DNA of 64,000 nt from Cryobacterium sp. PH31-L1 (GTDB lineage Bacteria; Actinomycetota; Actinomycetes; Actinomycetales; Microbacteriaceae), in assembly GCF_030063145.1 (NCBI RefSeq), contig NZ_JASISM010000003.1, forward strand, positions 248,001 to 312,000, read 5' to 3'. The position numbers were made by a program, and so were the translations under genes. Shown piece by piece: positions 8,230-34,007 of this stretch (the stretch's first letter is position 1; every line of letters starts with the position of its first letter). The notes beneath the pieces were generated by a model. The model was not told the origin of the DNA, made no database searches, and worked only from the letters and a program-made list of their open reading frames with translations.

Positions 8230-8865
8230 GTGACGCACGCGCATCCGCTGCACGTCGACCTCGAAGTGGCGTGCCTGTGTTGCCTCGCACCGCAGCCGTT
8301 TCACTTCACCTCGCTGAGCGACCAAGTGGTCTGCTCGCTCTGCGTGCACCACATCGGGGCCGAGAAATCCGAGCGCCGGGACCTTGAGCACGTGAAGCTG
8401 TGGGCTTCTCGCTGGGCTTCGGCTGAGACCGTACACGCCGATTACATCGCCGAAACGGATGCCTTACTCGTCGGCCGGGACAACGACCTGACCGCGCTTC
8501 GCGACCAGGTCGCCGAGCTCAGCGCTATCGTCGCCGGCCGGTTCACGGCCGGAATCGACGGAGTGCGGAGCCTGTTGCAGAATGACCTGGTCAAGCGTGC
8601 TGAACGCAACACCGAACTGGCCCGCCGGCAGATCGATTGGGCGATGGCCGGCATCTGGCGCGTTGAGGCGCTGCACCACTACTCAGCCGCGCAGAAGTGT
8701 TCCTGCGGCCGCACGGCGGGCAGCTGCGCCGAGAGCGCCGCGATCGACCCGCTCCGGCAGGCGCTGCTCGCCTGGGAGAAGAAGAACGTGGCGCTCCTGC
8801 GAGGGGGCAGCCGACACGGACTGCCGGCGGATCATCCCGCGGTGCTGGCCCAGCGCATCCGCTGA
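8230..8865 (+). CDS. Hypothetical protein with clustered Cys motifs
   Basis: 211 residues from the GTG at 8230, preceded by AGGTGGGAG five bases away. An ATG at 8203 would add nine residues with no clear ribosome site. No family recognised. The N-terminus carries CLCCLAPQ and then CSLC about 20 residues on; a second cluster, CSCGRTAGSC, lies near residue 160. These two clusters could bind zinc. Between them is a charged, helix-rich stretch (ALRDQVAELSAIVAG, VKRAERNTELARRQIDW) likely to form a coiled coil. No signal peptide or membrane helix. Its stop is two bases from the stop of the convergent transporter. Confidence 0.65.
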   Translation: MTHAHPLHVDLEVACLCCLAPQPFHFTSLSDQVVCSLCVHHIGAEKSERRDLEHVKLWASRWASAETVHADYIAETDALLVGRDNDLTALRDQVAELSAIVAGRFTAGIDGVRSLLQNDLVKRAERNTELARRQIDWAMAGIWRVEALHHYSAAQKCSCGRTAGSCAESAAIDPLRQALLAWEKKNVALLRGGSRHGLPADHPAVLAQRIR

Positions 8866-8866
8866 A

Positions 8867-10333
8867 TCAGTGGGCGCTGACCGGAGCGCTCTCGATCGCG
8901 TCGCCGAGCGGCGGGCGCCGCACAAGGAATGCGGCTGGAATGGCGAACAGTGAGATGATCGCGCCGCACAGGAACGCACCGCGAATTCCGGAGGCCGTCG
9001 CGGAGATCTCGGAGACGCCCTGCGCCATGAGGGCGGCAGACTGTGAGGTCATGATGGCGATGAACAGTGCCGTTCCGACGGCGCCGGCGAGCTGCTGGAC
9101 GGTGCCGACCACCGCGCTGCCGTGGGAGTACAGACTGGGCTTGAGTGAGCCGAGGCCGGAGGTGAACAACGGCGTGAACAGCAGCGAGAGCCCGGCGCTC
9201 ATGCCGACGTGGGCGATCAACAGCATCCAAGGCTGCGTGGTCTCGCCCAACATGGTCATGGCCCAGAACGCGGCGCTGACGAGAATCGAGCCGGGTACCA
9301 GCAGAATGGTCGGGCCGCGGCGGTCGTAGATGCGGCCGACGAATGGCGCCAGCAATCCCATCGTCAAACCACCCGGCAGCAGAAGCAGGCCGGTTTCCAG
9401 AGCCGTCAGGCCGAGCACGTTCTGCATGTACAGCGGCAACAGAATGATCGTGCCGAACAGGGCGAGCATGCTGATGCCGAGCATGGACACCGACAGGGTG
9501 AACGTGCGTGAGCCGAAGACGCGCAGGTCGAGCAGGGCGCGGTTGGAACGCTGCAGTCGCAGCTGCCGCAGCACGAACAGGGCCAACGCCACGACGCCAA
9601 TGCCGAGCGGAATCCAGCCCACAGCGGATGCCCCGCCCAGATTGCTCAGTCCATAGACGAACCCGCCGAACCCGAAGGCCGAGAGGATGACCGAAAGAAC
9701 GTCGAGCGGAACCTTGCGCGGCGTCGTCACGTTCTGAATGCGCGAGGCACCGAGGATGAGCGCGCCGACGGCGATCGGCAGCACCAGGATGAACATCCAG
9801 CGCCAGTCGAGCACGCTGAGGATGGCGCCGGAAATGGTCGGGCCGATCGCGGGGGCGACCGAGATGACGATGGAGATGTTGCCCATGGTCTTGCCGCGGG
9901 AGGCCGGTGCGACGAGCGTCATAACGGTGGTCATGAGCAGCGGCATCATGATGGCCGTTCCACTAGCCTGCACGATGCGACCAATCAGCAGCACCTCGAA
10001 GCCGGGTGCGAGCGCGGCGATCAGGGTTCCGGTGCTGAACAGTGTCATCGCGGCGATGAAGACCGGCCGGGTATTGAAGCGCTGAATGAGAAAACCGGTG
10101 ATCGGAATGACCACGGCCATCGTGAGCATGAAGGCCGTCGTCAGCCACTGAGCGGCCGTCGCCGTGATACTGAGGTCTTTCATGAGGTGCGGCAGGGCCA
10201 CACCCATGATGGTCTCGTTCAGAATGACGACGAAGGCCGAGACCAGCAGCAGTCGAATCACCAGCTGGTTGCGCTTGGCGTCGGGGTGAGCCCCGGCCTC
10301 GGGAATCGTGGCGGTGGCGGTTGGTGCGGTCAT
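8867..10333 (-). CDS. MFS multidrug exporter, DHA2 (14-helix) type
   Basis: 488 residues from the ATG at 10333. An upstream extension to 10414 is Arg-rich and unlikely. Around fourteen hydrophobic segments, with the motif-C-like signature SVAPAIGPTISGAIL and a start FVVILNETIMGVALP (motif D1 type, LDxTIVNVALP-like). This is the EmrB/QacA family of proton-driven efflux pumps. Substrate unknown. It lies 113 bp downstream of a LysR gene on the same strand, which may or may not control it. Confidence 0.85.
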   Translation of the reverse strand: MTAPTATATIPEAGAHPDAKRNQLVIRLLLVSAFVVILNETIMGVALPHLMKDLSITATAAQWLTTAFMLTMAVVIPITGFLIQRFNTRPVFIAAMTLFSTGTLIAALAPGFEVLLIGRIVQASGTAIMMPLLMTTVMTLVAPASRGKTMGNISIVISVAPAIGPTISGAILSVLDWRWMFILVLPIAVGALILGASRIQNVTTPRKVPLDVLSVILSAFGFGGFVYGLSNLGGASAVGWIPLGIGVVALALFVLRQLRLQRSNRALLDLRVFGSRTFTLSVSMLGISMLALFGTIILLPLYMQNVLGLTALETGLLLLPGGLTMGLLAPFVGRIYDRRGPTILLVPGSILVSAAFWAMTMLGETTQPWMLLIAHVGMSAGLSLLFTPLFTSGLGSLKPSLYSHGSAVVGTVQQLAGAVGTALFIAIMTSQSAALMAQGVSEISATASGIRGAFLCGAIISLFAIPAAFLVRRPPLGDAIESAPVSAH

Positions 10334-21383: not shown

Positions 21384-21498
21384 CAAGCCCCCCCCGGGGG
21401 GACGCTGCGGGCGGGGTGCAGGCGGAATGCCCAAGGTTTCCATAAGGCCCACGTCGCACTCTTACAGCATTCGCTCACCCTGAAGAGATAGGTGCGTC

Positions 21499-24400
21499 AT
21501 GAGCAGGTTCGAAGGTCAAGGAATCATTCGCAGCACGAGAAATACAACCGGAATGCGAGGTAGTCCACCGCCCAACGGCGTTGGAAGACCGAAGAGCGCC
21601 TTCCGCAAGTCCACCCGCATCGTCGCCGCCGGCATGGCCGTCGTGCTCTACGCCGTGCTGGGTCTCTCGAGTGCGATCAGCGCCAACGCGGCAGTCGCCC
21701 CGGTCGGTCAGGGCTTCACGGTCACCACGTCGGACCTCGCCTACATTCTCAAGCAGATCAAGATTGCCGAGGCTCACGCCGCGACGGCAACGCCGGCGAA
21801 CCCCTGCGGCACCCTGGTCGGCAGTGGTCCCAACCAGATTCCCGACCGGTTGTCGTCCTACGGACTCCGCACGGTTGACGGCTCGTGCAACAACCTCCTG
21901 CCGGGTCGTGAGACCTATGGCGCAGCCGATGAACTGTTCCCACGCCTCACCACACCGGTCTTCAACGACGCCGACCCGATCACGTCGAGCTTTCCAGTCG
22001 GCGCCCCCGGGCCGACGAGCTACAAGCAGAAGACCGGCTCGGTTGTCGACGCGCAGCCGCGCGAGGTCAGCAATTTGATCGTCGATCAGACAGCCACCAA
22101 TCCGGCCGCGGTCGCCGCCGCCGGATTCCCGGTGCGCACCCAGAACGCGGTAGGCAAGTTCCCCTGCACGACCGACCCCGACCTGACCGTCGATCCGCCG
22201 ATCGTGGGCGTTCCAGCGGGCTGTGTGCCCAAGTACGAAACGCTGTTCATTCCGAACGTAACGACCGACGTCGGCCTCTCGCCGCCGTACAACTCACTGT
22301 TCACGCTGTTCGGCCAGTTCTTCGACCACGGCGTCGACCAGACGGTCAAGGGCGGCGGAACCGTGTTCGTGCCGCTGCAGGCGGATGACCCGCTCATCGC
22401 CGGACCCGACCACAATTTCGCCACCACCGCCGACAATCTCGACCCGAACCTGCGCTTCATGGTGCTGACCCGGGCGCAGAACCAGCCCGGCGTTGACGGC
22501 CTGCTCGGCACCTCCGATGACGTGCAGGACGCTGCCAACACCGACTCGCCCTACGTCGACCAGTCGCAGACCTACACCTCGCACCCGTCGCACCAGCTGT
22601 TCCTGCGTGAGTACAAGAACAACACGGCGGGCAAGCCGGTCAACACCGGCCGCCTGCTCGGCGGTCCGGCCGGTCCAACGGCCGGCGGCATGGCAACCTG
22701 GGCAACAGTCAAGGCGCAAGCCAAGGACCTGCTCGGGCTGCTGCTGCAGGACAAGGACGTGCTGGACATTCCGCAGATGGCGGTTGACCCTTACGGCAAC
22801 TTCATTCCCGGACCGGCGCGTGGCTTGCCCATGTACGTCACTCCCACCGGAATGGTCGAAGGAGACATCGCAGCTCCCGTTGCGGTTCCGGCCAACGCCA
22901 TCTATTTCCACACCCCCTTCCTGACCGACATCGCGCACAACGCCGAACCGAAGCCGGGCCTCGTGGCCGACTCCAACACGACGGCCACCGCCGATTTCGC
23001 CAGCCAGCCAGCTGGAACGTACGACGACGAGATGCTCGACCTGCACTTCATCGCCGGTGACGGTCGCGTCAATGAGAACATCGGCCTGACCAGCATCCAC
23101 CAGGTCTTCCACTCCGAACACGACCGTCTGGTCGAGGAGTTCAAGACGACACTCAGCAACGACAACACGACCGCCAAGGGCATCGCCGCTCTAGCCGAGT
23201 GGAAGCTCGCAGCTGGCGCCGATGGCTGGAACGGCTCACGCCTGTTCCAGGCTGCCCGGTTCGTCACCGAGATGGAATACCAGCACCTCGTTTTCGAGGA
23301 GTTCGGTCGCAAGGTGCAGCCGGCGATCCAGCCGTTCCACGTTTACCACACCGATCTGAACCCGGCCGTCAAGGCGGAGTTCGCGCACGCGGTCTACCGT
23401 TTCGGTCACTCTATGCTGACCGAGACGATCGCCCGCACCAATGAGAACGGGTCGGGCAACGACATCTCGCTGCTCAAGGGGTTTCTCAACCCGATCGCTT
23501 ACACCGACGGCGGCTCTGCGGGGCAACTCACCTCGGAGCAGGCGGCCGGCAGTGTGATCATGGGCATGAGCGACCAGGTGGGCAACGAACTCGATGAGTT
23601 CGTCACTGACACCCTGCGCAACAACCTGCTGGGTCTTCCCCTGGACCTGCCGACGATCAATATGACGCGTGCCCGCTCCGAGGGTGTGCCACCGTTGAAC
23701 GAGGTACGGCGCCAGATTCACAACGCGACCGGTGACGGCCAGCTGGCTCCGTACACGAGCTGGGCTGATTTCGGCCAGAACCTCAAGCACCCGGAGTCGC
23801 TGATCAACTTCGTGGCCGCCTACGGCACCTTCCCGACGATCACCGCTGAAAGCACGATGGCTGGAAAGCGTGCTGCGGCCAAAGCAGTCGTGGATCCGGG
23901 TGCCGGCATTTCACCCACCCCCGAAGCCATCGACTTCATGAACAGCACCGCTGCCTACACGAACGTGGAAACCGGACTGAACACTGTCGACCTCTGGGTC
24001 GGTGGTCTCGCCGAGAACACCAACCTGTTCGGTGGCCTGCTGGGGAGCACGTTCAACTTCGTGTTCGAGAACCAGATGACCGACCTGCAGAACGGAGACC
24101 GGTTCTACTACCTGAACCGCACCCCTGGCATGAACCTGCGCTCGCAGCTCGAAGGTAACTCCTTCGCCGAGATGATGATGCGCAACACGGATGCCCACAG
24201 TCTGAAGGCCGACTCCTTCGGCACCGCAGACTGCAAGTTCCAGCTCGCTAATCTGGCTGGAACGCCTGCAGGCTATGCTGCATCCGGCGCAAGCGTGGCG
24301 GACGACCTCACGACGGTGGATTGTGACGAAAGCTTGCTGCTCTTGCGCAAGCCCGACGGCACCATCCAGTACCGTGCAGTGAACACGGTCGACCCGGTCG

Positions 24401-27294
24401 GCATCAACGGCCAGTCGGTCTATAACGGCACCGCAGCCGTAGACCGGATCGCCGGCGGTAACGACAACGACACCTTCCTCGGCAACGAGGGCGACGACGT
24501 GATCGAGGGCAGTGGCGGCGATGATATTGCCCTGGGTGGTATCGGCAACGACCGGTTGACGGACTCTGCCGGCGCTGACGTTTCCAAGGGTGGTCCGGGT
24601 AACGACTACATCAACACCGGTATCGGCGACGACATCATGATGGGCGGTGACGGTCAGGACTTCACCAACGGTGGCGCCAACGACAACGAGACCTTCGCCG
24701 GACCGGGCAATGACTTCGTGCGCGCCGGTGATGGAGCGGATGCCGTGTTCGGTGACGGTGGCGATGACTGGATCCAGGGTGGCTCCGGCCAGGACCTGCT
24801 GATCGGTGATCACAGCGCTCCGTTCTTCGACGACCCCGCTCAGACCGCACCCGGCAACGACATTTTTGTCGGCCAGGTCGGTGAGAACGACTACGACGCT
24901 GAGGGTGGCGACGACATCATGACCAGCAACGCGGCCATCGATCGGTTCGCTGGTTCTGCCGGGTTCGACTGGGCTACCCACCAATACGACACGGTGGCGG
25001 CCGACGATGACATGAACATCAACAACAACCTCATCGGAGTTCCGCTGCCCGCCGTGGTCAACCGTGACCGCTGGCAGGAAGTGGAGTCCAACTCGGGTTC
25101 CGCGTTCAACGACGTGATCCGTGGTGACAACGCAGTGCCCAGCACCGTTGGTGGTGCCGGCTTCAGTGGCTGCGACGTACTCGACCAGGCCGGCATCAAC
25201 CGCATCAGTGGCCTGAGCACTCTCATCACACCATCGATGCTGACCGTCCCGCTCGCGGGAGTGGAAGCGCTCTCCCCGATGGGTGTCTGCCCGCTCGAGG
25301 GCAACGTCTGGGGCGATGGCAACATCCTCCTCGGCGGCCTCGGCAGTGACTCACTCGAGGGTCGTGGCGCCAACGACATCATCGACGGCGACCGGTACGT
25401 GCAGATTCGAATCAGCGTGCGTGATGACGCCGGTGTCGAGATCGGCAGCACCGACCTGATGGAGCGCCCGTACCTGGCTGGCAGCACCCACACCCTGGAA
25501 CAGGATGTCGCTGCCGGACTGGTGAACCCGGGCAATCTGGTCGCGGTTCGGGAGATCATCACTCCCACCGCTGCTCAGTCGGCCGGCAACATCGACTCCG
25601 CAGTGTTCTCGGGCCTGACCAGCGACTACGAGGTGACCACCCTGAATGCCGACGGCACTCCGGGCATCTTCGGAACCGCCGGAACGGTCACCACGGTGCT
25701 CGACAACCGCGGCACCGATGGCACAGACACCCTGCGCAACATCGAACGCCTGCAGTTCAGCGACACAGTGGCCCCGGGAACCCCCACCGCCGTCAACGCA
25801 GTTGCCGGTAATGGAACGGTAACTGTGGACTGGATCGCGTCGCCGGTCGGCATCCCCACCAGCTTCTCGGTGAAGGTGCTCGATGCTGCTGGAGCTCAGG
25901 TCGGCGCGCTGCTGCCCGCAGCCGGAACCGCGACCAGCCTGGTCGTCACCGGGCTGACCAACGGCTCCAGCTTCACCTTCCAGGTATCGGCGACAAACGC
26001 GGAGGGTTCGAGCGCATTCTCGGCTTCGTCCAACGCGGTGACACCGTCGGCACCGGCCGTGCTCGTCGTACCAGGCGCACCAACGATCGGAACCTCGGTC
26101 GCCGGTAATGCCCAGGTGACGGTGAACTGGACCGCTCCCGGCGCTGTAACCAACGCCCCGGCAGTCACTGGCTATCGCATCCGCACCTTCGTCGGTGCGG
26201 CCACGACGCCAGCGTTCAGCACGACGGTAGGGAACGTCACCACCCGCGTGATCACGCTGCTCACCAACGGCACCGGATACACCTTCGATGTCGCGGCGAT
26301 CAACTCGGTCGGCACCGGACCTGTCTCGGCTCGTTCGGTCTCGGTCACACCGACTGCACCAACGGTGCTGGTCGTGCCTGGCGCACCAACGATCGGAACC
26401 TCGGTCGCCGGTAACGCCTCGGTGACGGTGAACTGGACCGCCCCTGGCGCTGTTACTAACGCCCCAGCAGTCACGGGCTACGTGATTCGCACCTTCATCG
26501 GTGCTGGCACGACGCCAACGGGCAGCACAACGGTGGCGAACGTGACCACCCGGGTGATCACGGCACTAACGAATGGAACCGGGTACACCTTCGATGTCGC
26601 CGCGATCAACTCGGTCGGCACCGGAGCGGCATCCGCTCGTTCGGTCGCTGTCACGCCGCGCACGGAGTTCGTGCTCCCGACCGTGACAGCGCGCACCCCC
26701 GCAACGGGCGCTCGCTCGGTGAGTCAGACCGGTAACCTGACGGCAACGTTCAGCGAAGCGGTCACGGGAGTCAGCGGCACGACGTTCGTTCTTCGGCTCG
26801 GCACGACGGTGATCCCCGCCGTCGTGTCGTACAACGCCACGACTCGCGTCGCGACGCTGAACCCTAACGCAACCCTGCTCGCTGACCGCAGCTACACGGC
26901 CACCCTCTCGGGTATTCGTGACGTGGCGGGTAACACGATGGTGGCCAGTTCCTGGACCTTCATCACCGGACCGGCACCGACGATCACCGCCATCAGTCCC
27001 GCCGCGGGAGCGACGGGGGTGGGACGGTTGGTGAGCCCGACCGCGACATTCAGTGAAACCATCAGTGGATTCAGCGCAACGTCGGTCACGGTCACCCGAC
27101 CCGGCGCGACGATCGCCTCGACGTTGTCGTTCAACGCGACGACCCGAGTGCTGACGATCAACCCGAACGCCACCCTCCTCGCCAACACCACGTACACGGT
27201 GACCATCACCGGTGGCACTGGTGCTGTGCGAGACCTGGCTGGCAACCCGGTCGCGACCCGCACCTGGTCGTACACGACGGGAGCGGTCAACTAA
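21499..27294 (+). CDS. Secreted animal-type haem peroxidase with RTX calcium repeats, Fn3 and Ig-like domains
   Basis: 1931 residues from the ATG at 21499 (AGAGATAGGTG upstream). A signal peptide is visible: basic stretch to residue 40, hydrophobic 41-60, probable cleavage after ANA (~64). The peroxidase domain spans roughly 240-900. It has the distal His (H277) in FGQFFDHGVD, the segment VNENIGLTSIHQVFHSEHDR, and the proximal His (H637) in YRFGHSML. RTX nonapeptide-like calcium repeats follow (about 986-1105, with a short second block at 1274-1300), rich in GGxGxDxx. Three Fn3 modules come next (about 1425-1725) and two Ig-like (Big_5-type) modules complete it (1728-1931). There is no LPxTG anchor. 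The family includes MopA-type Mn(II)-oxidising peroxidases; the substrate here is not known. It is followed by a multicopper oxidase. Confidence 0.9.
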   Translation: MSRFEGQGIIRSTRNTTGMRGSPPPNGVGRPKSAFRKSTRIVAAGMAVVLYAVLGLSSAISANAAVAPVGQGFTVTTSDLAYILKQIKIAEAHAATATPANPCGTLVGSGPNQIPDRLSSYGLRTVDGSCNNLLPGRETYGAADELFPRLTTPVFNDADPITSSFPVGAPGPTSYKQKTGSVVDAQPREVSNLIVDQTATNPAAVAAAGFPVRTQNAVGKFPCTTDPDLTVDPPIVGVPAGCVPKYETLFIPNVTTDVGLSPPYNSLFTLFGQFFDHGVDQTVKGGGTVFVPLQADDPLIAGPDHNFATTADNLDPNLRFMVLTRAQNQPGVDGLLGTSDDVQDAANTDSPYVDQSQTYTSHPSHQLFLREYKNNTAGKPVNTGRLLGGPAGPTAGGMATWATVKAQAKDLLGLLLQDKDVLDIPQMAVDPYGNFIPGPARGLPMYVTPTGMVEGDIAAPVAVPANAIYFHTPFLTDIAHNAEPKPGLVADSNTTATADFASQPAGTYDDEMLDLHFIAGDGRVNENIGLTSIHQVFHSEHDRLVEEFKTTLSNDNTTAKGIAALAEWKLAAGADGWNGSRLFQAARFVTEMEYQHLVFEEFGRKVQPAIQPFHVYHTDLNPAVKAEFAHAVYRFGHSMLTETIARTNENGSGNDISLLKGFLNPIAYTDGGSAGQLTSEQAAGSVIMGMSDQVGNELDEFVTDTLRNNLLGLPLDLPTINMTRARSEGVPPLNEVRRQIHNATGDGQLAPYTSWADFGQNLKHPESLINFVAAYGTFPTITAESTMAGKRAAAKAVVDPGAGISPTPEAIDFMNSTAAYTNVETGLNTVDLWVGGLAENTNLFGGLLGSTFNFVFENQMTDLQNGDRFYYLNRTPGMNLRSQLEGNSFAEMMMRNTDAHSLKADSFGTADCKFQLANLAGTPAGYAASGASVADDLTTVDCDESLLLLRKPDGTIQYRAVNTVDPVGINGQSVYNGTAAVDRIAGGNDNDTFLGNEGDDVIEGSGGDDIALGGIGNDRLTDSAGADVSKGGPGNDYINTGIGDDIMMGGDGQDFTNGGANDNETFAGPGNDFVRAGDGADAVFGDGGDDWIQGGSGQDLLIGDHSAPFFDDPAQTAPGNDIFVGQVGENDYDAEGGDDIMTSNAAIDRFAGSAGFDWATHQYDTVAADDDMNINNNLIGVPLPAVVNRDRWQEVESNSGSAFNDVIRGDNAVPSTVGGAGFSGCDVLDQAGINRISGLSTLITPSMLTVPLAGVEALSPMGVCPLEGNVWGDGNILLGGLGSDSLEGRGANDIIDGDRYVQIRISVRDDAGVEIGSTDLMERPYLAGSTHTLEQDVAAGLVNPGNLVAVREIITPTAAQSAGNIDSAVFSGLTSDYEVTTLNADGTPGIFGTAGTVTTVLDNRGTDGTDTLRNIERLQFSDTVAPGTPTAVNAVAGNGTVTVDWIASPVGIPTSFSVKVLDAAGAQVGALLPAAGTATSLVVTGLTNGSSFTFQVSATNAEGSSAFSASSNAVTPSAPAVLVVPGAPTIGTSVAGNAQVTVNWTAPGAVTNAPAVTGYRIRTFVGAATTPAFSTTVGNVTTRVITLLTNGTGYTFDVAAINSVGTGPVSARSVSVTPTAPTVLVVPGAPTIGTSVAGNASVTVNWTAPGAVTNAPAVTGYVIRTFIGAGTTPTGSTTVANVTTRVITALTNGTGYTFDVAAINSVGTGAASARSVAVTPRTEFVLPTVTARTPATGARSVSQTGNLTATFSEAVTGVSGTTFVLRLGTTVIPAVVSYNATTRVATLNPNATLLADRSYTATLSGIRDVAGNTMVASSWTFITGPAPTITAISPAAGATGVGRLVSPTATFSETISGFSATSVTVTRPGATIASTLSFNATTRVLTINPNATLLANTTYTVTITGGTGAVRDLAGNPVATRTWSYTTGAVN
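26059..26670 (+). repeat. Two tandem 306-bp repeats coding for Fn3 modules
   Basis: Unit 1 (26059-26364) and unit 2 (26365-26670) are nearly identical at the DNA level over long stretches, for example at GGCGCACCAACGATCGGAAC. Both encode a 102-residue Fn3 module beginning VLVVPGAPTIGTSVAGNA. The preceding Fn3 module is diverged. A recent internal duplication is likely, with potential for copy-number change. Confidence 0.85.
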
Positions 27295-27312
27295 AACAAG
27301 CACCTGCATAGC

Positions 27313-27345
27313 CCGGCCGGCGTCTCGCGTTGAGTCGCCGGCCGG
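27313..27345 (+). terminator. Hairpin after the peroxidase gene
   Basis: CCGGCCGGCG, 13-base loop, CGCCGGCCGG, then TTCCCCC. A perfect 10-bp stem 19 bp after the peroxidase stop and 55 bp before the multicopper oxidase start. It could terminate, or partly attenuate, read-through into the next gene. Confidence 0.65.
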
Positions 27346-27400
27346 TTCCCCCACACGTTGCAGCACCCGATTACCAGTGAAAAGCCTTTAAGGAGAGGTC

Positions 27401-29089
27401 ATGACATCACGCAGGGAAGTCTTGCAGTTGGGCGCATTCGGTGCGCTCGGCTTGGCCGGAATGCAGGGAAACGACAACCCCGTTCCGACGGTTCCCCTGA
27501 TCACGCAGAGCCAGCTCGCCCCCCAGAACATGCCAGTGCCCTACGCCGGCGTTTTTCGCCGTCCGCCGGTACTCGCACCGTACGAAACGGGTTTCGATGC
27601 CGGCGACCCGGAACGACCATACGCCTACTACTCACTCACCCAAAAACTCGGTCAGGCCCAGTTCATGCCCGGGCTCTCGACGACGATCGCCGGCTACAAC
27701 GGCATGTTTCCCGGGCCCACCATCCGCGCCGTTCAGGGCACCCGGTGCGAGCTGCGCATTCGCAATGCCCTGCCGGCAACGGGGCTGCTGCACGCCAACG
27801 CCTTTCGCACGGTGACTCACCTGCATGGCTCGGCGTCGCTGCCGCAGTACGACGGCTACGCCAACGACTTCACCGCTCCCGGCAAGGTGAAGACCTACCA
27901 TTACCCGAACTGGCAGACCGCGCGCACCCTGTGGTATCACGACCACAACCACCACCTCACCGCGCAAAACGTCTACTCGGGGCTCGCGGCGTTTTATCCC
28001 CTGTCTGACCGCTACGAGCAAGGGCAGTTGCCACAGGGTGAGTTTGATGTTCCACTGATGATTTCCGACGTCATGTTCAAGGCGGATGGATCGCTGGGCT
28101 ACAACGACAATTCCCATAATGGGTTGTGGGGCGACATCATCATGGTCAACGGGGTGCCTTGGCCGACCATGACGGTCAAGCCGCGCATCTATCGCTTTCG
28201 GGTGTTGGACGCCTCGGTCTCCCGCTCGTACCGGCCCACCCTGTCGACCGGCGACCCGGTGTATGTCGTTGGCACCGACGCCGGGATGACCCCGATCGTG
28301 CAGCCCGTCGCTTCCTGGCGCCAGGGCAACGCCGAACGTTATGAAATTCTGATCGATTTCAGAAAGTATCGGGTCGGTCAGAAGATCGACCTGAAAAACC
28401 TCAGCAACAAGAACAACGTCAACTTCGCAAATACCGACAAGATCATGCGGTTTGAGGTCGTGGCCGACTCGGGTTCCGGCCAGGGCAGCATCTCAGCAAT
28501 TCCGACGACCCTCGACGACGGCGGAGCGCTCAACCCGGACCGCGGCGGCATCGCCACCATGGACCTGACCCCAGCCATGGCCAAGGCCAAGCGCGAACTG
28601 AGGGTGGAGAAGACCAACGGAATCTGGAAGATCAACGGGGTCACCTGGGACGACGTCGCGGCCTCCCGGTTCACCAAGTTGTTCGCCAATCCGCAGCCCT
28701 ACGATGTGGAACAGTGGACCATTATCAATGCCTCCGGCGGCTGGTTCCACCCCCTGCACATCCACCTGATCGACGCCAAGATCATCGCGCGCAACACCAA
28801 CGGCGGCAAACCGTTCGCTTGGGAAAATGGTCCGAAAGACGTGTTCTATGCCGGCGAGAACGAGTCGATCACGGCGCTCATGCAGTTCGACACCGGAAAC
28901 GACGCCGGTGGCCGCTACATGATTCACTGTCACAACCTGGTGCACGAGGACCACGACATGATGGTGCAGTTCGCGGTCGGCGACTACCGGGTGAACGACC
29001 CGATCAACTCCGATCCTTCCTATGCGGATACCATGCCGCTTGATGCCTACCCGTCGGTTTACCTGCCGGGATACCCGGCCGGTACCTGA
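27401..29089 (+). CDS. Tat-exported multicopper oxidase
   Basis: 562 residues from the ATG at 27401, with AAGGAGAGG upstream. The N-terminus MTSRREVLQLGAFGALGLAG is a twin-arginine signal (SRREVL). Copper-binding motifs are complete: HLHGSASLP with following DGYAND; WYHDHNHHLT (H180 region); WFHPLHIHLID (~448); and HCHNLVHEDHDMM (H509-C510-H511, with a Met axial ligand for the type 1 copper). The cupredoxin-domain layout is CotA/bilirubin-oxidase-like. Such enzymes oxidise phenols, metals or bilirubin with O2 reduced to water. It sits directly behind the secreted peroxidase and overlaps the following lipoprotein gene as TGATG, so co-expression is likely. Confidence 0.92.
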   Translation: MTSRREVLQLGAFGALGLAGMQGNDNPVPTVPLITQSQLAPQNMPVPYAGVFRRPPVLAPYETGFDAGDPERPYAYYSLTQKLGQAQFMPGLSTTIAGYNGMFPGPTIRAVQGTRCELRIRNALPATGLLHANAFRTVTHLHGSASLPQYDGYANDFTAPGKVKTYHYPNWQTARTLWYHDHNHHLTAQNVYSGLAAFYPLSDRYEQGQLPQGEFDVPLMISDVMFKADGSLGYNDNSHNGLWGDIIMVNGVPWPTMTVKPRIYRFRVLDASVSRSYRPTLSTGDPVYVVGTDAGMTPIVQPVASWRQGNAERYEILIDFRKYRVGQKIDLKNLSNKNNVNFANTDKIMRFEVVADSGSGQGSISAIPTTLDDGGALNPDRGGIATMDLTPAMAKAKRELRVEKTNGIWKINGVTWDDVAASRFTKLFANPQPYDVEQWTIINASGGWFHPLHIHLIDAKIIARNTNGGKPFAWENGPKDVFYAGENESITALMQFDTGNDAGGRYMIHCHNLVHEDHDMMVQFAVGDYRVNDPINSDPSYADTMPLDAYPSVYLPGYPAGT

Positions 29090-30051
29090 TGTTTCACGGA
29101 CCACGCCGGGCCCCGGCAGCGCCACTGCTCCTCGCACTGCTCTGCGTTGGATTACTCAGCAGCGCAGTCCTGAGCGGCTGCACCGCCGGGGCTTCGGCCT
29201 CCCCGCCCGGAGGCTCTCCGACGGCGACGGCCGCTGAAGACGACGTCGGGGTCGATATCGGCAATGGCCGGCCGACCGTGAGCTTCGACGGGCCGATGGT
29301 GCGTCGACGCGTGGTGCTCGCCGTTGAAGCGGATGCTGACCCGCCCGCGTTGCGCGCGCGGCTGGAACAACGGGCATCCGCTGCCCAGCTGGTGCTCGCC
29401 GATATCTCGCCCGACGTCCTGCCAGCCGGGGTGCTCGAACAGGGCGTGCCCCAGCTGACCGAGCTGCTGTCGATGGGGGCGACCGAGGACCAGGCGCGCA
29501 CTCTCCTCTCAAGCACTGGACCGACCAACGATCAGTACTTCGTGCTCAGCGTGCTCGTACACGATCTGCGTTTTGCGGTGAGCTCGGCCGACCCGGTGGC
29601 GCTGGCCGACGCGATTGCGCGGGAAGGCATCCTCTCGGATGCGCTCGGTAATTACGGCACGACGGTGGACGCCAACACACTGAACGTGACCTATCTGGGG
29701 GCTCTGCTCGGCGATGATGTGGTCAATGCCGTGCGCAACGGAATGGCGCGCGCTGCGGGGCTGACGGCCGATCAGGTGCGCGTTACGGCCGGGACACTGG
29801 GTGGGGCCGGCGTTGACATGGCCACGGAACCCGAACCGGCCCAGGTCGCCATTGCGGAGAACGGCTCCGGGCACGGGCATGATGCGACCGCTGCGACGGC
29901 CGCCCCGACCCAGCTGAGCGTCAACGTCCGGCTGCTCTATGGCATCGGTCTGGCCATACTGCTGCTGGCCTCGGCGACAATCGTGCTGTGGGCGACTCGT
30001 CGGCGCGTGCCGGCTAGCGAGATCGAACCGGAGCCACGCGATCGAGAGTAG
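29089..30051 (+). CDS. Lipoprotein with a C-terminal membrane segment, function unknown
   Basis: 320 residues. Lipobox LSGC ends the N-terminal signal (hydrophobic ~12-27, Cys ~31). A second hydrophobic segment near the C-terminus (LLYGIGLAILLLASATIVLW, ~285-305) is followed by a basic RRR stop-transfer. The extracytoplasmic part (~35-280) has no recognised fold; it is Ala/Asp-rich with short helical stretches. The gene starts within the stop of the multicopper oxidase (TGATG), implying a shared job such as tethering or copper handling at the membrane surface; this is inference. Its last 38 bp overlap the convergent histidine kinase gene. Confidence 0.75.
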   Translation: MFHGPRRAPAAPLLLALLCVGLLSSAVLSGCTAGASASPPGGSPTATAAEDDVGVDIGNGRPTVSFDGPMVRRRVVLAVEADADPPALRARLEQRASAAQLVLADISPDVLPAGVLEQGVPQLTELLSMGATEDQARTLLSSTGPTNDQYFVLSVLVHDLRFAVSSADPVALADAIAREGILSDALGNYGTTVDANTLNVTYLGALLGDDVVNAVRNGMARAAGLTADQVRVTAGTLGGAGVDMATEPEPAQVAIAENGSGHGHDATAATAAPTQLSVNVRLLYGIGLAILLLASATIVLWATRRRVPASEIEPEPRDRE

Positions 30052-31369
30052 CCATGACGGAGGTGCCACCGCCCATCCAGGAACGCACTTCGAGCGAGCC
30101 ACCGGCAACGTGAATGGTGTCCCGCATGATGCGCAGCCCGAGATGGTTGACGGGGGCACCCGCGCTTAAATCGAACCCGCAGCCGTTGTCGTGAATGAGC
30201 AAAATGGTGCGGTCGTCGTCCTGCAACAGGGTGAGCTCGAGAACACCAGCCCTGGCGTGCTTCACTGTGTTAGCGAGCACCTCGCGGGCGACCCGATAGA
30301 ACATTGCGGCACGGTCGCGATCGAGGTCGCAGTTGGCCGGCACGTGAAGTTTGACCTCGATCCCCTGCTCGAGCAGCGGAGCGGTGAGGCGTGTGAGGGC
30401 GGCCGGCAGCCCCAGCTCTTCGAGGTCGGGCGGGTACAGCTCGGTAGTCATCGCCCGCAGCGTACGCACGTTCTTCTGCAGGATGGCTTTGGCCTGGCCG
30501 AACAGTGCCCGGTTCTCCGGTGCGGAGTGCCGCTCCTCGGCTTCGAGGGCATAGGACAGCCCGGCTAGGTCCTGAATGACCTCGTCGTGCAGGTCGCGCG
30601 CAATGCGCTGGCGCTCCAAGTCGGAGGCATCGATAGCGTGCTGCAAAAGCTTGCGCTTGGTGGACTGGTGATTTTGAATGCGCCGGGCCAGCTGCACGGC
30701 CGGTATGAGTTGCGCCAGCTGCAGAGCTCCGAGCGACAGCAGGAAGGCCGGGATGAGGCCGAGAAGTACGGTGTCTTGCTCATGGCGCAGGGCATCGTCG
30801 TTGAAATAGGCCTCGAGGATGAAAGCGTTGCCATTGCTCGCGATCGACCGCACGTAGACCTCGACAAGTTCACCCGAATCGGTCTCATACAGGTCGTCGG
30901 GGGCTGTTTGCGTCTCGAGGGTGGCGCGGCCCGTGCCGCCGGCCAGTAGCTCCGGTGCCCAACTGGGGAGGGAGAAATTCTGGCCGACGAGCAGGGGCAG
31001 ATCGGAGTAGACAATTTTTCCCTTGGCGTCCCAGACCTTGATGCGCACGAGCGACCCATCGGCGAGGCGGGGGGCCAATCGTTCGTCGAGGCGCCGAGTG
31101 GATCCCGGATCGCCGGCCAGGACGCCGTCAGTGATCAGCGGACCGAGTGAGTAGTCAGCCAGACGCTGGGTCTGCAACACCGCGTTGGCCATCGCGTTGG
31201 CCTCGGACTGCGCGCGCACCCAGAGGGCGACAGGCACGGCGACCAGCACCAGGGCAACGAGTCCCATGAGCAGAAAACGCTGCACTGCAGCGCGAACCTC
31301 GGAGCGTTCGGCGGCCTGATACTCGTCGTGCCGCTTCTGGAGCGACGAGCCCGGCCGCCTTCTAGACAT
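30014..31369 (-). CDS. NarL-type sensor histidine kinase
   Basis: 451 residues from the ATG at 31369, which overlaps the response regulator stop. TM1 about 30-52, extracytoplasmic sensor about 55-180, and TM2 about 185-210. The HisKA_3 dimerisation helix has the phosphoacceptor in ERQRIARDLHDEVIQDLAGL. The HATPase_c domain has the N-box REVLANTVKHARAG, the G1 box DNGCGFDL and HLGLRIMRD. The sensor region (with TQTAPDDLYETDSG) is not recognised. The gene is convergent to, and overlaps by 38 bp, the lipoprotein gene of the peroxidase/multicopper oxidase block, so it probably senses a state linked to that block. Confidence 0.9.
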   Translation of the reverse strand: MSRRRPGSSLQKRHDEYQAAERSEVRAAVQRFLLMGLVALVLVAVPVALWVRAQSEANAMANAVLQTQRLADYSLGPLITDGVLAGDPGSTRRLDERLAPRLADGSLVRIKVWDAKGKIVYSDLPLLVGQNFSLPSWAPELLAGGTGRATLETQTAPDDLYETDSGELVEVYVRSIASNGNAFILEAYFNDDALRHEQDTVLLGLIPAFLLSLGALQLAQLIPAVQLARRIQNHQSTKRKLLQHAIDASDLERQRIARDLHDEVIQDLAGLSYALEAEERHSAPENRALFGQAKAILQKNVRTLRAMTTELYPPDLEELGLPAALTRLTAPLLEQGIEVKLHVPANCDLDRDRAAMFYRVAREVLANTVKHARAGVLELTLLQDDDRTILLIHDNGCGFDLSAGAPVNHLGLRIMRDTIHVAGGSLEVRSWMGGGTSVMATLDRVAPVRSR

Positions 31370-32105
31370 GCTGCGCCGGCACCAGACCGAGTCGGGTGGC
31401 AATCACGACGGCCTCGAGCTGCGAGTGCGCGCCGAGCTTGCCGAGGATGGCTTTGACGTAACCACGGCAGGTGTTCTCGGAAATTCCGAGGACCTTCGCG
31501 TTGGCCCGCACGTCGGAGCCCTCGCCCATCAGCCGGAGCACGGCGAGCTCACGCTTGGTGAGATCGGGAAACGGGATCTCCTCGCTGTGCTGGCGACGCC
31601 TGGCGCTCAACAGGCTGACGAGGGACGGGTGCACGATGAATCCACCGATGCGCGCGTGCCGCAGGGTATCGAGCACCGTCGCGAGGGAGCCGTCTTTGGG
31701 CAGGAAGGCGCAGACCCCGATCGCGGCGGCCTGCTCGAGAGCCTCGAGCGCGGGGTCGCCGGTGAGGATGACAATTCGGGTACGGGGAGCGCGGGCGAGG
31801 ATGGCTGTGGCCGCGACAAGACCGCTGCCGTCGGGCAGGTGATAGTCCATCACGACGACGTCGGGGGCCAATTCCAGGCAGGCGGCGATGCCCGTGGCCA
31901 CGCTGTTGGCCGAGCCGACGCTGCACAAATCGGGTTCGCGATTGAGCGAACCAGTGAGAAGCTCGGCGAAGGTGGTGTGGTCGTCGACGATGAGAATACG
32001 AATTTGCCCCAGCGGTGTTGTGTCGACCGTGATGGATCCGGGCTGTGACGCGGTCGCGGTGGTCCCCTGCGCGTTGGGTTCGATGGGGGACAGCTGCGGG
32101 GTCAT
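31362..32105 (-). CDS. NarL/LuxR-family response regulator
   Basis: 247 residues from the ATG at 32105, with AGAGAGG upstream. A disordered N-terminal tail (~1-35) precedes the receiver domain: acidic pair in ILIVDDHTTF, phosphoacceptor Asp in VVVMDYHLPDGSG, Thr in LTGDP and Lys in FLPKDGS. The C-terminal LuxR helix-turn-helix contains LTKRELAVLRLMGEG and LGISENTCRGYVKAIL. It is co-transcribed with the sensor kinase (8-bp overlap). Its targets are unknown; the neighbouring secreted oxidoreductases or the SARP gene are the likely ones. Confidence 0.9.
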   Translation of the reverse strand: MTPQLSPIEPNAQGTTATASQPGSITVDTTPLGQIRILIVDDHTTFAELLTGSLNREPDLCSVGSANSVATGIAACLELAPDVVVMDYHLPDGSGLVAATAILARAPRTRIVILTGDPALEALEQAAAIGVCAFLPKDGSLATVLDTLRHARIGGFIVHPSLVSLLSARRRQHSEEIPFPDLTKRELAVLRLMGEGSDVRANAKVLGISENTCRGYVKAILGKLGAHSQLEAVVIATRLGLVPAQHV

Positions 32106-32258
32106 GCGCGGGGACCTCTCTGCCCGTTCCTGAGCCTCGATGCTGGCGGAGCGCACCGTGCTATTCCGATAGGCGAGACAAGTATCAGTACAACCTGAGT
32201 ATTTGTCGAGTCCTGTCGCTTTGGTCCCCCATGTGGTAGGGCGACTGGCACGGCCGGA

Positions 32259-33251
32259 TCAGGCGCGAGCGACGGCGCGTCGCAGAAATGACGTGACAAC
32301 ATCAGTAGCCTCCCGGAGGGAATCCGCGACTGGCTCTGGTCGCGAAGAAGTAGTGGTGGCAGGGCGCGAAGCCGGACCTATGGCGGATGACGCTCGAAGC
32401 TGGTCGTGCAGCATGAGCAGGGCGGACAGCACGTCGGCCAGATCGCCGTCTCCGTCAGCCGTCGCGTGCAGCAGCCGAAGCTGGGCGGCCCGCAGAAGCG
32501 GGCCCGGAGCGCAGCCCAGCTCGACCTGCATCGCGCGGCGACACCGGTCGAAGGACTGCAGGCCCTCGGCGTGACGCCCGCTCGTCTCCAGCCCGAGGAT
32601 CAGGGCCGTCCAGGCTCGTTCGTTCAGCGGCTCGTCGGCCAGAGCGAGGTTCGCGAAATCGAGGGCGTCATCGATGCGGTGCAGGGCTGCGGCCGTTTCG
32701 GAAGCGAGAATGCGGGCGCTGGTGAGTCGGGCGGCGTGGAGATCGCGGGCTTCCATCGCCCAAGCCGGCACGAGTTCGTCGCCGAGCAGCGGTGCGGCGG
32801 CGAGGTCCAGAGCGCGGAGCAACAGGGGATAGGCAAGGCCCGGAATGGTCTTCTGCGCACGCTGCAGCAGCACGTCGAATTGATCTAGGTCGACGTCGAC
32901 CAGTTCACGGTCCAACACGTAGCCGCCAGTCGTGGTTTGCAGCGGGCCGAATTTTCCCGCGCCGGGCTGCAGATGGCGACGGAGAACACTCACGTAGCTT
33001 TCGAGGGTGGGCAGGGCTTCTAGCGGAGCGCTGGCGCCCCACAGCAATTCAATGAGCCGGTCCTTGGAGACAGGCAGTCCGAGGTGCACGAGCAGAATTT
33101 CGAGGATCTGGCGGGGCTTGGGGCCGCCCAGGTCATGGGCGTACAGCACGACAGACCCCCGCCGAACGCTGAGATTTCCAAAAACGTGCACGCTCAAGTG
33201 GGTCATCGGTGTCGCGGTGGGCTGTTCTCGGGTGTCGAATCCAGTTGTCAT
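32259..33251 (-). CDS. SARP-family regulator (winged helix plus BTAD)
   Basis: 330 residues from the ATG at 33251, which has GGAGGT a few bases upstream. An OmpR-type winged helix spans about 20-105 (GPKPRQILEILLVHLGLPVS, LPTLESYVSVLRRHL). The bacterial transcriptional activation domain about 115-260 is TPR-like, with NERAWTALILGLETSGRHAE. The overall layout is that of SARPs such as ActII-ORF4 and AfsR's N-terminal part, which activate secondary-metabolite clusters. No biosynthetic cluster is present here, so the likely targets are the neighbouring peroxidase/oxidase genes or the membrane protein just upstream. Confidence 0.85.
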   Translation of the reverse strand: MTTGFDTREQPTATPMTHLSVHVFGNLSVRRGSVVLYAHDLGGPKPRQILEILLVHLGLPVSKDRLIELLWGASAPLEALPTLESYVSVLRRHLQPGAGKFGPLQTTTGGYVLDRELVDVDLDQFDVLLQRAQKTIPGLAYPLLLRALDLAAAPLLGDELVPAWAMEARDLHAARLTSARILASETAAALHRIDDALDFANLALADEPLNERAWTALILGLETSGRHAEGLQSFDRCRRAMQVELGCAPGPLLRAAQLRLLHATADGDGDLADVLSALLMLHDQLRASSAIGPASRPATTTSSRPEPVADSLREATDVVTSFLRRAVARA

Positions 33252-33352
33252 GCTGACCTCCACTGTTGGATTGCAACCATGGTGCCCGCGGTCGATGGGC
33301 GGGGGTAGCCGCGTGTGGAGTAGACATTTACCCCCAATTTCGGGGGATATTC

Positions 33353-33940
33353 TCAGGGTGCGGTGTGGTGCCCGGTTCCGAGTGATAACCGCGAGCCCTG
33401 CGGGCCGTCCAAAACCAGGGCGATGGCCTGATTCGGGATCTCAAAGACCAGGGTTGCCAGAACGGATGTACCGGCCGCCGCCTCCCACTGGCTCGGGTCG
33501 ACCCAGAGCGCGGTGGCCCGGGATCCGACGCCGGACAGGGAATAGTCGGCGGCGTCGAACGACAAGCCGGTGGCATCCACTGCGGTCAGTTCGAGCATGA
33601 TGCGCACGCGGTGAGCGCCGGGCTGCACAGCGCTGTCGAGCCGGTCGGCCGCGCGGGGTGGTATCCAGCCGTCGGATTCGAGTGGGATGACCGCGCTGAT
33701 GCGGGCGAGGCCGCCCGGGATGGCGGCCGTGTCGCCAAACGCGGTGCTCGGCTTCGTGCCGGTCAGAAGCAGCACACAGGCCAACGAGGCCATCACGAGC
33801 CAGGCGACGGCCAGCGGGATCAGAATCTTACGGCGACGCGGCGACAGGGCGCGGCGCGGTTGCGTCTGCCGAGTGTTTTCGGGGTGCTTCGCGTCGTCGT
33901 CGAGGCGAACCAGACGCAGGGATGCGTTTGCGGGAGTCAT
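33353..33940 (-). CDS. Single-pass membrane protein, function unknown
   Basis: 195 residues. A basic cytoplasmic N-terminus (~1-37, ending PRRRKILIP) is followed by one membrane helix (~39-60, VAWLVMASLACVLLL). An exported C-terminal domain (~65-195) has a beta-rich look and a conserved-looking LVFEIPNQ segment. No family recognised; it resembles small exported domains with a Telokin/DUF4352-like fold, but this is weak. It lies about 100 bp upstream of the SARP gene on the same strand, so it may be part of the same regulatory unit. Confidence 0.65.
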   Translation of the reverse strand: MTPANASLRLVRLDDDAKHPENTRQTQPRRALSPRRRKILIPLAVAWLVMASLACVLLLTGTKPSTAFGDTAAIPGGLARISAVIPLESDGWIPPRAADRLDSAVQPGAHRVRIMLELTAVDATGLSFDAADYSLSGVGSRATALWVDPSQWEAAAGTSVLATLVFEIPNQAIALVLDGPQGSRLSLGTGHHTAP

Positions 33941-34007
33941 GGCGGAATCTTGCTGCCGGCACCATGGGAAAACCCTGCTGGGGTGGCTCGGTCGGTGCTG
34001 ATGCTTT

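What the first reader, a model, noticed from the sequence alone, without database searches (positions are those of the whole stretch)
21499..33940. Candidate undescribed secreted oxidoreductase system: haem peroxidase, multicopper oxidase, lipoprotein, two-component system and SARP
Sequence shows: a 1931-residue exported haem peroxidase with calcium repeats, then a Tat-exported multicopper oxidase with all copper ligands, then a lipoprotein whose gene overlaps it. These converge on a sensor kinase/response regulator pair, a SARP and a membrane protein; the kinase gene overlaps the lipoprotein gene by 38 bp. Established knowledge: MopA-type calcium-binding haem peroxidases and multicopper oxidases are the two enzyme types linked to Mn(II) oxidation in Aurantimonas, Erythrobacter and Pseudomonas putida GB-1. 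Inference: here they form one regulated module in an actinomycete, perhaps for Mn(II), phenolic or lignin-like substrates. The SARP would be repurposed from secondary metabolism.
Basis: partly seen in the sequence, partly recalled or inferred. Interest (0 to 1): 0.85.

Follow-up and report, generated by a model that had tools for sequence, protein, structure and literature searches.

The report
SARP-linked peroxidase and copper oxidase regulon
In Cryobacterium, a secreted haem peroxidase and a secreted copper oxidase are found together, beside their own regulators, and share a DNA control box that in related strains also precedes a gene for a known type of manganese-oxidising enzyme, which makes regulated manganese oxidation in these bacteria directly testable.

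Summary
In detail: seven genes with the stated features lie at 21499-33940 (the finding says eight). They form a real module. Among 57 Cryobacterium genomes the multicopper oxidase (MCO) and the peroxidase occur in the same 22 and are both missing from the other 35, also where unlinked. Among 297 genomes of the order they occur in 12 and 15, together in 10. Catalytic motifs are intact. New here: a 16-bp box 67 bp before the peroxidase gene, an 11-bp-period repeat of the kind SARPs bind (recalled). It also precedes free-standing MCO genes (12 of 82, against 7 of 1329 other genes) but none of 17 MCO genes directly behind the peroxidase. In four related genomes it precedes a giant oxidase gene; the one protein tested matches the Mn(II) oxidase MnxG at E = 1e-217. 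Best reading: an extracellular oxidation regulon, probably for Mn(II), switched by a two-component system through the SARP. Substrate, SARP binding, and MnxG in this host are not shown. The families are known; this combination and its box did not appear in the literature listings searched.

The parts
21432..21447 (+). Operator-like box CAAGGTTTCCATAAGG (AAGG repeated with 11-bp period), 67 bp before the peroxidase start
   Evidence: Nearly invariant before the peroxidase gene in the genus; shared with free-standing MCO genes and an MnxG-type gene; only exact match to the pattern in this genome
21499..27294 (+). Exported animal-type haem peroxidase (long peroxicin / MopA type) with PERCAL motif, RTX, fn3 and Big_5 domains
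27313..27345 (+). GC-rich inverted repeat between the peroxidase and MCO genes, also in the aligned relatives; possible attenuator or RNA-processing site (inference)
27401..29089 (+). Twin-arginine (Tat) multicopper oxidase of bilirubin-oxidase type
29089..30051 (+). Lipoprotein, predicted tandem ferredoxin-like units, His-containing tail, C-terminal transmembrane helix in this clade
30014..31402 (-). Sensor histidine kinase (HisKA_3/HATPase_c) with an N-terminal sensor region
31362..32156 (-). NarL/LuxR-type response regulator (true start may lie downstream; receiver domain begins at residue 54)
32259..33263 (-). SARP (winged helix plus BTAD), candidate binder of the box
33331..33346 (.). Palindrome-like CCCCCAATTTCGGGGG upstream of the SARP gene, nearly invariant in the aligned relatives; candidate response-regulator site (inference)
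33353..33940 (-). Membrane-anchored protein, predicted DUF4352-like Ig fold; His110, His191, His192 invariant in 10 of 10 aligned
33962..33977 (-). Diverged copy of the box (CAGGGTTTTCCCATGG, 2 mismatches to the pattern) just before the membrane-protein gene, at the other end of the module

Best explanation
A regulated extracellular oxidation module of Cryobacterium, Arthrobacter and kin. SHOWN by comparison: the peroxidase and the MCO are a co-inherited pair; they travel with particular HK, RR and SARP relatives; and a specific box stands before the peroxidase, or before the MCO where the MCO begins its own unit. INFERRED: the HK senses an extracellular cue and phosphorylates the RR, which raises the SARP; the SARP binds the box (overlapping the -35 region) and activates peroxidase-MCO-lipoprotein and, through the variant box, its own membrane-protein/SARP unit. 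The MCO leaves folded through Tat; the two anchored, His-containing accessory proteins help load it with copper or hold it at the surface; the peroxidase is secreted as a calcium-stabilised RTX and Ig-domain protein. Together they most likely oxidise Mn(II) to Mn(III/IV) outside the cell, the MCO with O2, the peroxidase by MopA-like chemistry. My probabilities: functional module 0.97; control through this box 0.93; SARP is its binder 0.75; Mn(II) a physiological substrate 0.5.
For: Pair present in the same 22 of 57 Cryobacterium genomes and absent from the same 35, including genomes with the two on different contigs (G793) or about 112 kb apart (G805) (hypergeometric 3e-16, not corrected for kinship). 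Order sample: MCO in 12, peroxidase in 15, both in 10 of 297 genomes; by genus 7, 8 and 5 of 94, P = 2e-5. Kinase relatives scoring 300 bits or more lie in 15 of 26 MCO+peroxidase loci, 8 of 70 MCO-only loci and 3 of 20 peroxidase-only loci; all other kinase hits score 186 or less. Box (window 16-mer, up to 3 mismatches): 15 of 46 peroxidase genes, 12 of 82 MCO genes not behind a peroxidase, 0 of 17 directly behind one, 7 of 1329 other genes; 300 permuted 16-mers gave mean 0.05 (maximum 4) MCO and mean 0.75 (maximum 7) other genes. Of 32 exact pattern sites in 57 genomes (control pattern 3), 26 lie up to about 300 bp before a peroxidase (15), bilirubin-oxidase-type MCO (7) or MnxG-type gene (4); 18 of 22 pair genomes and 4 of 35 others have a site. 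In G203 a peroxidase and an MCO on different contigs carry the identical box. The MnxG-type protein of G808 matches solved MnxG (9bxa) at 9.9e-218. MopA of Erythrobacter, a haem peroxidase with PERCAL and hemolysin-type motifs, oxidises Mn(II) (PMC6247904, passages incl. part of the abstract).
Against: No expression, binding or activity data. The box counts are not independent: 7 of the 12 MCO hits are one Cryobacterium paralogue group and 13 of the 15 peroxidase hits are Cryobacterium. 31 of 46 peroxidase and 70 of 82 free MCO genes have no box that I could recognise. The MCO is of bilirubin-oxidase type; the MnxG model is not among its NCBIfam hits, so the substrate cannot be read from it. 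In P. putida GB-1 MopA activity was 'not present' in the cited work (PMC11930936 passages), and PMC3396595 says catalytic properties of such bacterial peroxidases cannot yet be predicted. No box-fronted MnxG was found in this host; whether it has any MnxG could not be tested. In the phylum sample of 296 the pair does not co-occur: 17 MCO genomes (E 1e-60), 5 peroxidase genomes (E 1e-30), both only in this host and G203. By eye the kinase sensor alignment shows no invariant metal-ligand set.
Confidence: 0.55

Rival explanations
1. The same regulon, but the substrate is phenolic: humic or lignin-like aromatics are oxidised by the MCO (laccase or bilirubin-oxidase chemistry) and the peroxidase, for detoxification or carbon.
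For: The MCO is closest to fungal bilirubin oxidase and next to CotA among solved structures, enzymes that oxidise organic substrates (recalled). Many relatives are Arthrobacter or Intrasporangiaceae, soil bacteria by recall.
Against: No aromatic catabolic gene is among the seven genes; neighbours checked are an AMP-binding enzyme, a TetR, a CitMHS transporter and ThiC. The shared box before an MnxG-type gene points to a metal.
Confidence: 0.25
2. Oxidative cross-linking of a surface layer: the two enzymes cross-link secreted Ig-like or PKD proteins (dityrosine or quinone chemistry), as peroxidasin does in matrix or CotA in the spore coat (recalled).
For: The peroxidase carries fn3 and Big_5 domains. 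Near MCO or peroxidase in kin loci there are clusters of secreted Big_5/fn3 proteins (19 loci), S26 signal peptidases (21) and PKD proteins (5); single-linkage clusters with only one to a few members checked in Pfam. The box precedes PKD and small exported proteins.
Against: Tyrosine is not enriched (2.1% of the peroxidase, 1.6% after residue 950); no separate structural partner lies among the seven genes; the MnxG-type member does not fit.
Confidence: 0.13
3. A copper-detoxification set like CueO/CopC, with the peroxidase as an oxidative-stress partner.
For: The MCO hits the CueO model at 190 bits (cut-off 525); a cluster of 15 loci near distant relatives holds at least one CopC protein; a distant MCO (54%) on an Arthrobacter plasmid lies near a heavy-metal P-type ATPase.
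Against: No copper exporter or CueR/CsoR-type regulator among the seven genes; co-inheritance with a haem peroxidase and a SARP is unlike copper resistance (recalled).
Confidence: 0.07

Closest known systems
MopA-type Mn(II)-oxidising haem peroxidases (Erythrobacter SD-21, Aurantimonas, Roseobacter AzwK-3b)
   Same: Animal-type peroxidase domain with the Asp/Glu pattern, PERCAL motif, C-terminal hemolysin-type calcium repeats, about 2000 aa
   Different: Actinobacterial; one PERCAL motif where Erythrobacter MopA has three; added fn3 and Big_5 domains; paired with an MCO; Mn(II) activity untested. No MopA sequence was compared directly
Pseudomonas putida GB-1 Mn oxidation (MnxG, McoA, MopA; MnxS1/S2 and MnxR)
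   Same: MCO and haem peroxidase in one organism, with proposed two-component control (PMC11930936 passages)
   Different: Here HisKA_3 and NarL-type proteins plus a SARP; the two oxidases adjacent and co-inherited; MCO of bilirubin-oxidase type
BoxA of Arthrobacter sp. QXT-31 (bilirubin-oxidase type Mn(II) oxidase)
   Same: Same broad MCO type by name, in a genus that also carries this module; listed as an experimentally characterised Mn-oxidising protein in PMC12896264 (passages)
   Different: Sequence and neighbourhood not held here, so orthology is untested; the original paper was not held
SARP regulators (AfsR and relatives)
   Same: Winged helix plus BTAD; the candidate site is a repeat with 11-bp period, as recalled for SARPs
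   Different: Beside extracellular oxidases, not a biosynthetic cluster
MnxG (PDB 9bxa)
   Same: The box-fronted 1668-aa protein of kin genome G808 (L255) matches it in three stretches, E = 9.9e-218
   Different: Not the window's MCO; N-terminal membrane and His-rich extension; NCBIfam MnxG model hit at 290.7 bits, far below its cut-off of 3100

Membership tests
Long peroxicin / MopA type | Animal haem peroxidase domain with distal D/H, R-x-x-E and proximal His | tested here: met
   Pfam E 4.7e-57; motifs at 272, 523, 633, and in 47 of 47 relatives
Long peroxicin / MopA type | PERCAL motif G-x-D-G-x-x-[GN]-[TN]-x-D-D in the peroxidase region | tested here: met
   GVDGLLGTSDD at residue 331; 30 of 47 relatives have a match; definition from PMC3396595 passages
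Long peroxicin / MopA type | C-terminal hemolysin-type calcium repeats, 1600-3300 aa | tested here: met
   PF00353 1.2e-15; 1931 aa; length range from PMC4420034 passages
Long peroxicin / MopA type | Mn(II) oxidation | not testable with these tools
   needs enzyme assay
Bilirubin-oxidase type MCO | Copper-site motifs, axial Met, and the Trp beside the T1 His (hallmark recalled) | tested here: met
   H140/H142, H180/H182, W448, H450/H453/H455, H509/C510/H511/H515, M520; W-x-HPxHxH in 100 of 100 relatives; best solved relative bilirubin oxidase, 7e-90
BoxA (Arthrobacter QXT-31) | Orthology to BoxA | not testable with these tools
   sequence not held; original paper not held
MnxG | Window MCO matches the MnxG family | tested here: not met
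   NF041487 is not among the 8 NCBIfam families listed for P0002 at E 0.1
MnxG | Box-fronted 1668-aa kin protein (L255) matches MnxG | tested here: inconclusive
   PDB MnxG 9bxa 9.9e-218, but the NCBIfam equivalog cut-off is not reached (290.7 of 3100 bits)
SARP | Winged helix plus BTAD | tested here: met
   PF00486 1.5e-6 and PF03704 1.2e-14
SARP | Binding to direct repeats with 11-bp period at the -35 region (recalled) | tested here: inconclusive
   The repeat is there and conserved; binding and transcription start not tested
P. putida type Mn-oxidation control | MnxS1/S2 and MnxR regulators | not tested
   The RR here is NarL-type; no MnxR sequence was compared

The most novel reading that the evidence does not exclude
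Cryobacterium, Arthrobacter and kin carry a dedicated Mn(II)-oxidation regulon in which a SARP, elsewhere a switch of antibiotic synthesis, directly controls an obligate pair of secreted oxidases (MopA-like peroxidase and bilirubin-oxidase-type MCO), joined in some species by an MnxG-type oxidase, through one 11-bp-repeat operator: three Mn-oxidase types under one switch.
Probability: 0.42. Interest if true: 0.85.

Novelty: new variant of a known kind. Interest (0 to 1): 0.72.

Why it matters
Regulatory mechanisms and functions of Mn biomineralisation are called unknown in the abstract of PMC11930936. Here two enzyme types tied separately to Mn oxidation are co-inherited and share an upstream box, which in four genomes also fronts the third type, MnxG. 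That gives a candidate regulator, a 16-bp operator to mutate, and a genus with and without the module (22 and 35 of 57 genomes). It would extend SARPs beyond secondary metabolism and give a marker box for finding further members: small exported proteins (L222, L223) and a Tat-exported protein (L256) have already surfaced.

Tried and rejected
Random adjacency in one genome: rejected. The window MCO being MnxG itself: rejected. A tyrosine-rich cross-linking substrate inside the peroxidase: not supported. A metal-ligand set in the kinase sensor: none evident by eye in 17 aligned sequences. The fold search of the lipoprotein gave only weak ferredoxin-like/ACT matches, that of the membrane protein weak DUF4352-like matches; neither names a function. 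Two 1-mismatch sites elsewhere in the host genome front no recognised member, and the control pattern also had two. Sites in four pairless Cryobacterium genomes (three with CAAGGTTTGCGCAAGG) front no recognised exported oxidase in the 3-kb loci read and are taken as chance. Papers: no article linking a SARP with these enzymes, or Cryobacterium with Mn-oxidation genes, appeared by title or abstract start in the listings; listings were capped and only the open-licence library was searched, so this is weak evidence of absence.

Counting notes. Some named loci and G-handle loci are the same DNA (L042/L194, L073/L202, L074/L203, L080/L204, judged by equal contig lengths), so counts hold a few duplicates; the 7 'other' genes are 5 distinct ones. 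Gene starts came from a simple script and some are wrong. The free positions of the pattern used were chosen; one search used the window's own 16-mer. Sites were assigned by reading the loci or by position against gene coordinates; the G815 and one G251 site were not assigned. Gene-neighbour clusters are single-linkage, and only one to three members of each were checked in Pfam. Left out of alignments: L027 (A2), L077 (A1), both for a stop in the reference given, and weaker or cut relatives.
Full report
WHAT IS THERE. The nearest named MCO relative is from Cryobacterium flavum, 91%, so I take the host to be a Cryobacterium. There are seven genes, not eight. The kinase/lipoprotein overlap is 38 bp, the lipoprotein/MCO overlap 1 bp.

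THE ENZYMES. The peroxidase has the distal GQFFDH, R-x-x-E and proximal FGH motifs, one PERCAL motif (GVDGLLGTSDD, residue 331), RTX repeats, three fn3 and two Big_5 stretches. PERCAL and the long-peroxicin class are described in PMC3396595 and PMC4420034 (passages). MopA of Erythrobacter, a haem peroxidase with PERCAL and hemolysin-type motifs, oxidises Mn(II) (PMC6247904 passages). In the plasmid collection 32 records hold a relative, all under 60% identity, mostly Rhizobium, Ensifer and other Alphaproteobacteria. The MCO is nearest to fungal bilirubin oxidase, then CotA, among solved structures; copper motifs are intact in 99 or 100 of 100 relatives, and the Trp beside the T1 histidine, a bilirubin-oxidase hallmark by recall, in 100 of 100. 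Nothing in the motifs suggests an inactive enzyme.

THE ACCESSORY PROTEINS. In 27 aligned lipoproteins the lipobox Cys31 and His158 are invariant, and by eye each has histidines in its tail; in the window's clade a transmembrane helix follows. In 199 genomes of the family the lipoprotein matches 5, three of them strongly, all of this genus. Its model (mean pLDDT 79) suggests two ferredoxin-like units, with weak matches only. The membrane protein has one N-terminal helix and an Ig-like domain resembling DUF4352 proteins (pLDDT 78, weak matches), with His110, His191 and His192 invariant in 10 of 10. In L061 and L198 a homologue sits directly before the MCO gene. A role in copper loading or retention is inference.

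IT IS A MODULE. The seven-gene block recurs in Cryobacterium (for example L009, L010, L013, L050, L077). In L012, L018 and L020 the SARP lies before the peroxidase instead. Arthrobacter loci L021, L024, L025, L028 and L047 keep peroxidase-MCO-lipoprotein. Terrabacter, Terracoccus and Intrasporangium loci (L067, L068, L071) have an MCO beside SARP, RR and HK relatives. Peroxidase loci with no MCO in the stretch read carry them too (L178, L185; HK in L177, SARP in L182). Kinase scores separate: 333 and up in such loci, 186 and down for the rest. In 57 Cryobacterium genomes MCO and peroxidase (E 1e-100) are present in the same 22 and absent from the same 35, also when unlinked (G793 on different contigs, G805 about 112 kb apart). 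In 297 genomes of the order a bilirubin-oxidase-type MCO (470 bits or more) occurs in 12, the peroxidase (E 1e-20) in 15, both in 10; by genus 7, 8 and 5 of 94, P = 2e-5. Beyond the genus count these tests do not correct for kinship. Against a wider rule: in the phylum sample of 296, MCO relatives (E 1e-60) are in 17, the peroxidase (E 1e-30) in 5, both only in G000 and G203.

THE BOX. Alignment of upstream regions of nine Cryobacterium loci showed a nearly invariant block before the peroxidase, with CAAGGTTTCCATAAGG at 21432-21447 in the window. It repeats AAGG with an 11-bp period, the format recalled for SARP sites. I then asked where this 16-mer (up to 3 mismatches, gene sense, -300 to +100 of called starts) occurs: 15 of 46 peroxidase genes, 12 of 82 MCO genes not behind a peroxidase, 0 of 17 MCO genes directly behind one, 0 of 128 regulator, lipoprotein and membrane-protein genes, 7 of 1329 others. 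Fisher for free MCO against others is 2e-11, treating genes as independent. Permuted 16-mers gave mean 0.05 (maximum 4) MCO and mean 0.75 (maximum 7) other hits. The hits are not independent: 7 of the 12 MCO hits are one Cryobacterium paralogue group, the rest come from Arthrobacter (L035, L039, L040), another Cryobacterium MCO (L059) and a Dermatophilaceae bin (L063); 13 of the 15 peroxidase hits are Cryobacterium. Of the 7 others, five distinct, all lie near an MCO: secreted PKD proteins (L067, L068, L074/L203), a FAD oxidoreductase divergent from an MCO (L197), and a STAS-domain/Amdase gene (L080/L204). 31 of 46 and 70 of 82 kin genes have no box I could recognise, so it drifts or is lineage-limited.

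WHOLE-GENOME TEST OF THE BOX. Pattern CAAGGTTTNCNNARGG: in 19 genomes 12 sites, control 0. They precede the peroxidase (G078, G141, G203), an MCO (G141, G203), genes beside MCOs (G216, G437, G251) and two small exported proteins (G375, G347); one lies near a frame that looks by eye like a signal peptidase (G410) and one is unassigned (G251). In G203, an Arthrobacter by contig match to L042, a peroxidase and an MCO on different contigs carry the identical CAAGGTTTCCGCAGGG. In 57 Cryobacterium genomes there are 32 sites, control 3: 15 before the peroxidase, 7 before an MCO, 4 before an MnxG-type gene, 1 before a Tat-exported 259-aa protein (G823), 1 unassigned (G815), 4 in pairless genomes. 18 of 22 pair genomes and 4 of 35 others have a site; of the four pair genomes without one, three (L012, L018, L020 by coordinates) have a variant and one (G783) was not looked at. 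In the host only the peroxidase site is exact. Inside the window, at 2 mismatches or fewer, the only two sites are at the two ends of the module; two or more arise in 23 of 100 shuffles, so only its position and its conservation in 8 of 8 aligned relatives make the second one interesting.

THE LINK TO MANGANESE. The box lies 125-140 bp before an MCO gene in G805, G806, G808 and G809, all pair genomes. The full frame is 1694 aa in G805 and 1668 aa in G808; in G806 and G809 the first 458 aa were read. By coordinates these are Cryobacterium sp. Y57, Y11, Y50 and Y29. Only the G808 protein was searched: phmmer finds one solved relative, MnxG (9bxa), at 9.9e-218 in three stretches; the NCBIfam MnxG model is hit at 290.7 bits, below its cut-off of 3100. 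The four upstream regions are alike overall, so this is one inherited promoter, not four independent sites. Whether the host has such a gene is unknown. PMC12896264 lists BoxA of Arthrobacter QXT-31 among experimentally characterised Mn-oxidising proteins (passages); orthology is untested. In P. putida GB-1, which has two MCOs and MopA, promoter activation of mnxG and mcoA needs Mn, MnxS1/S2 and MnxR are proposed regulators, and MopA activity was not present (PMC11930936 passages).

MECHANISM. Best reading: extracellular cue, HK, RR (perhaps at the palindrome 33331-33346), SARP, box, peroxidase-MCO-lipoprotein; secretion by Sec and Tat; Mn(II) oxidation at the surface. The GC-rich hairpin between peroxidase and MCO may tune their ratio. 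Shown: anatomy, co-inheritance, shared box. Inferred: every regulatory arrow, copper loading, substrate. Rivals are phenolic oxidation, surface cross-linking and copper detoxification.

NOVELTY. The parts belong to known families, and Mn oxidation under a two-component system is known. The co-inherited peroxidase-MCO pair, the SARP, the operator and its reach to an MnxG-type gene did not appear in the literature listings searched. I call it a new variant of a known kind.

Noticed in passing
L206 (G000:C3) about 8767-9694: Second copy of the response-regulator gene with only the first ~77 residues of the kinase, 80% DNA identity, near a frame that looks like a recombinase: a partial duplicate
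   Followed up: partly
L027 2358-6816: In C. glaciale the membrane-protein reading has an internal stop and one MCO is a fragment, while a second full MCO lies close by; described only
   Followed up: no
L065-L087, L202-L211: Distant MCO relatives are often followed by a small multi-helix membrane protein (cluster of 24 loci, some members large) and an S26 signal peptidase (21 loci); a further cluster of 15 loci holds at least one CopC protein (one representative of each checked)
   Followed up: partly
L222 and L223: Two similar-looking small exported proteins (about 155-175 aa) carry the box in genomes that also hold the peroxidase
   Followed up: partly
L256 6074-6853: Tat-exported 259-aa protein without Pfam match, box 63 bp upstream, followed by a 423-aa frame without Pfam match
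   Followed up: partly
L255 1342-2058: Transposase gene beside the MnxG-type gene in G808; the flanks differ in G805, so this gene may have moved
   Followed up: no
L232, L242, L243: Identical site CAAGGTTTGCGCAAGG in three pairless Cryobacterium genomes without a recognised exported oxidase downstream
   Followed up: no
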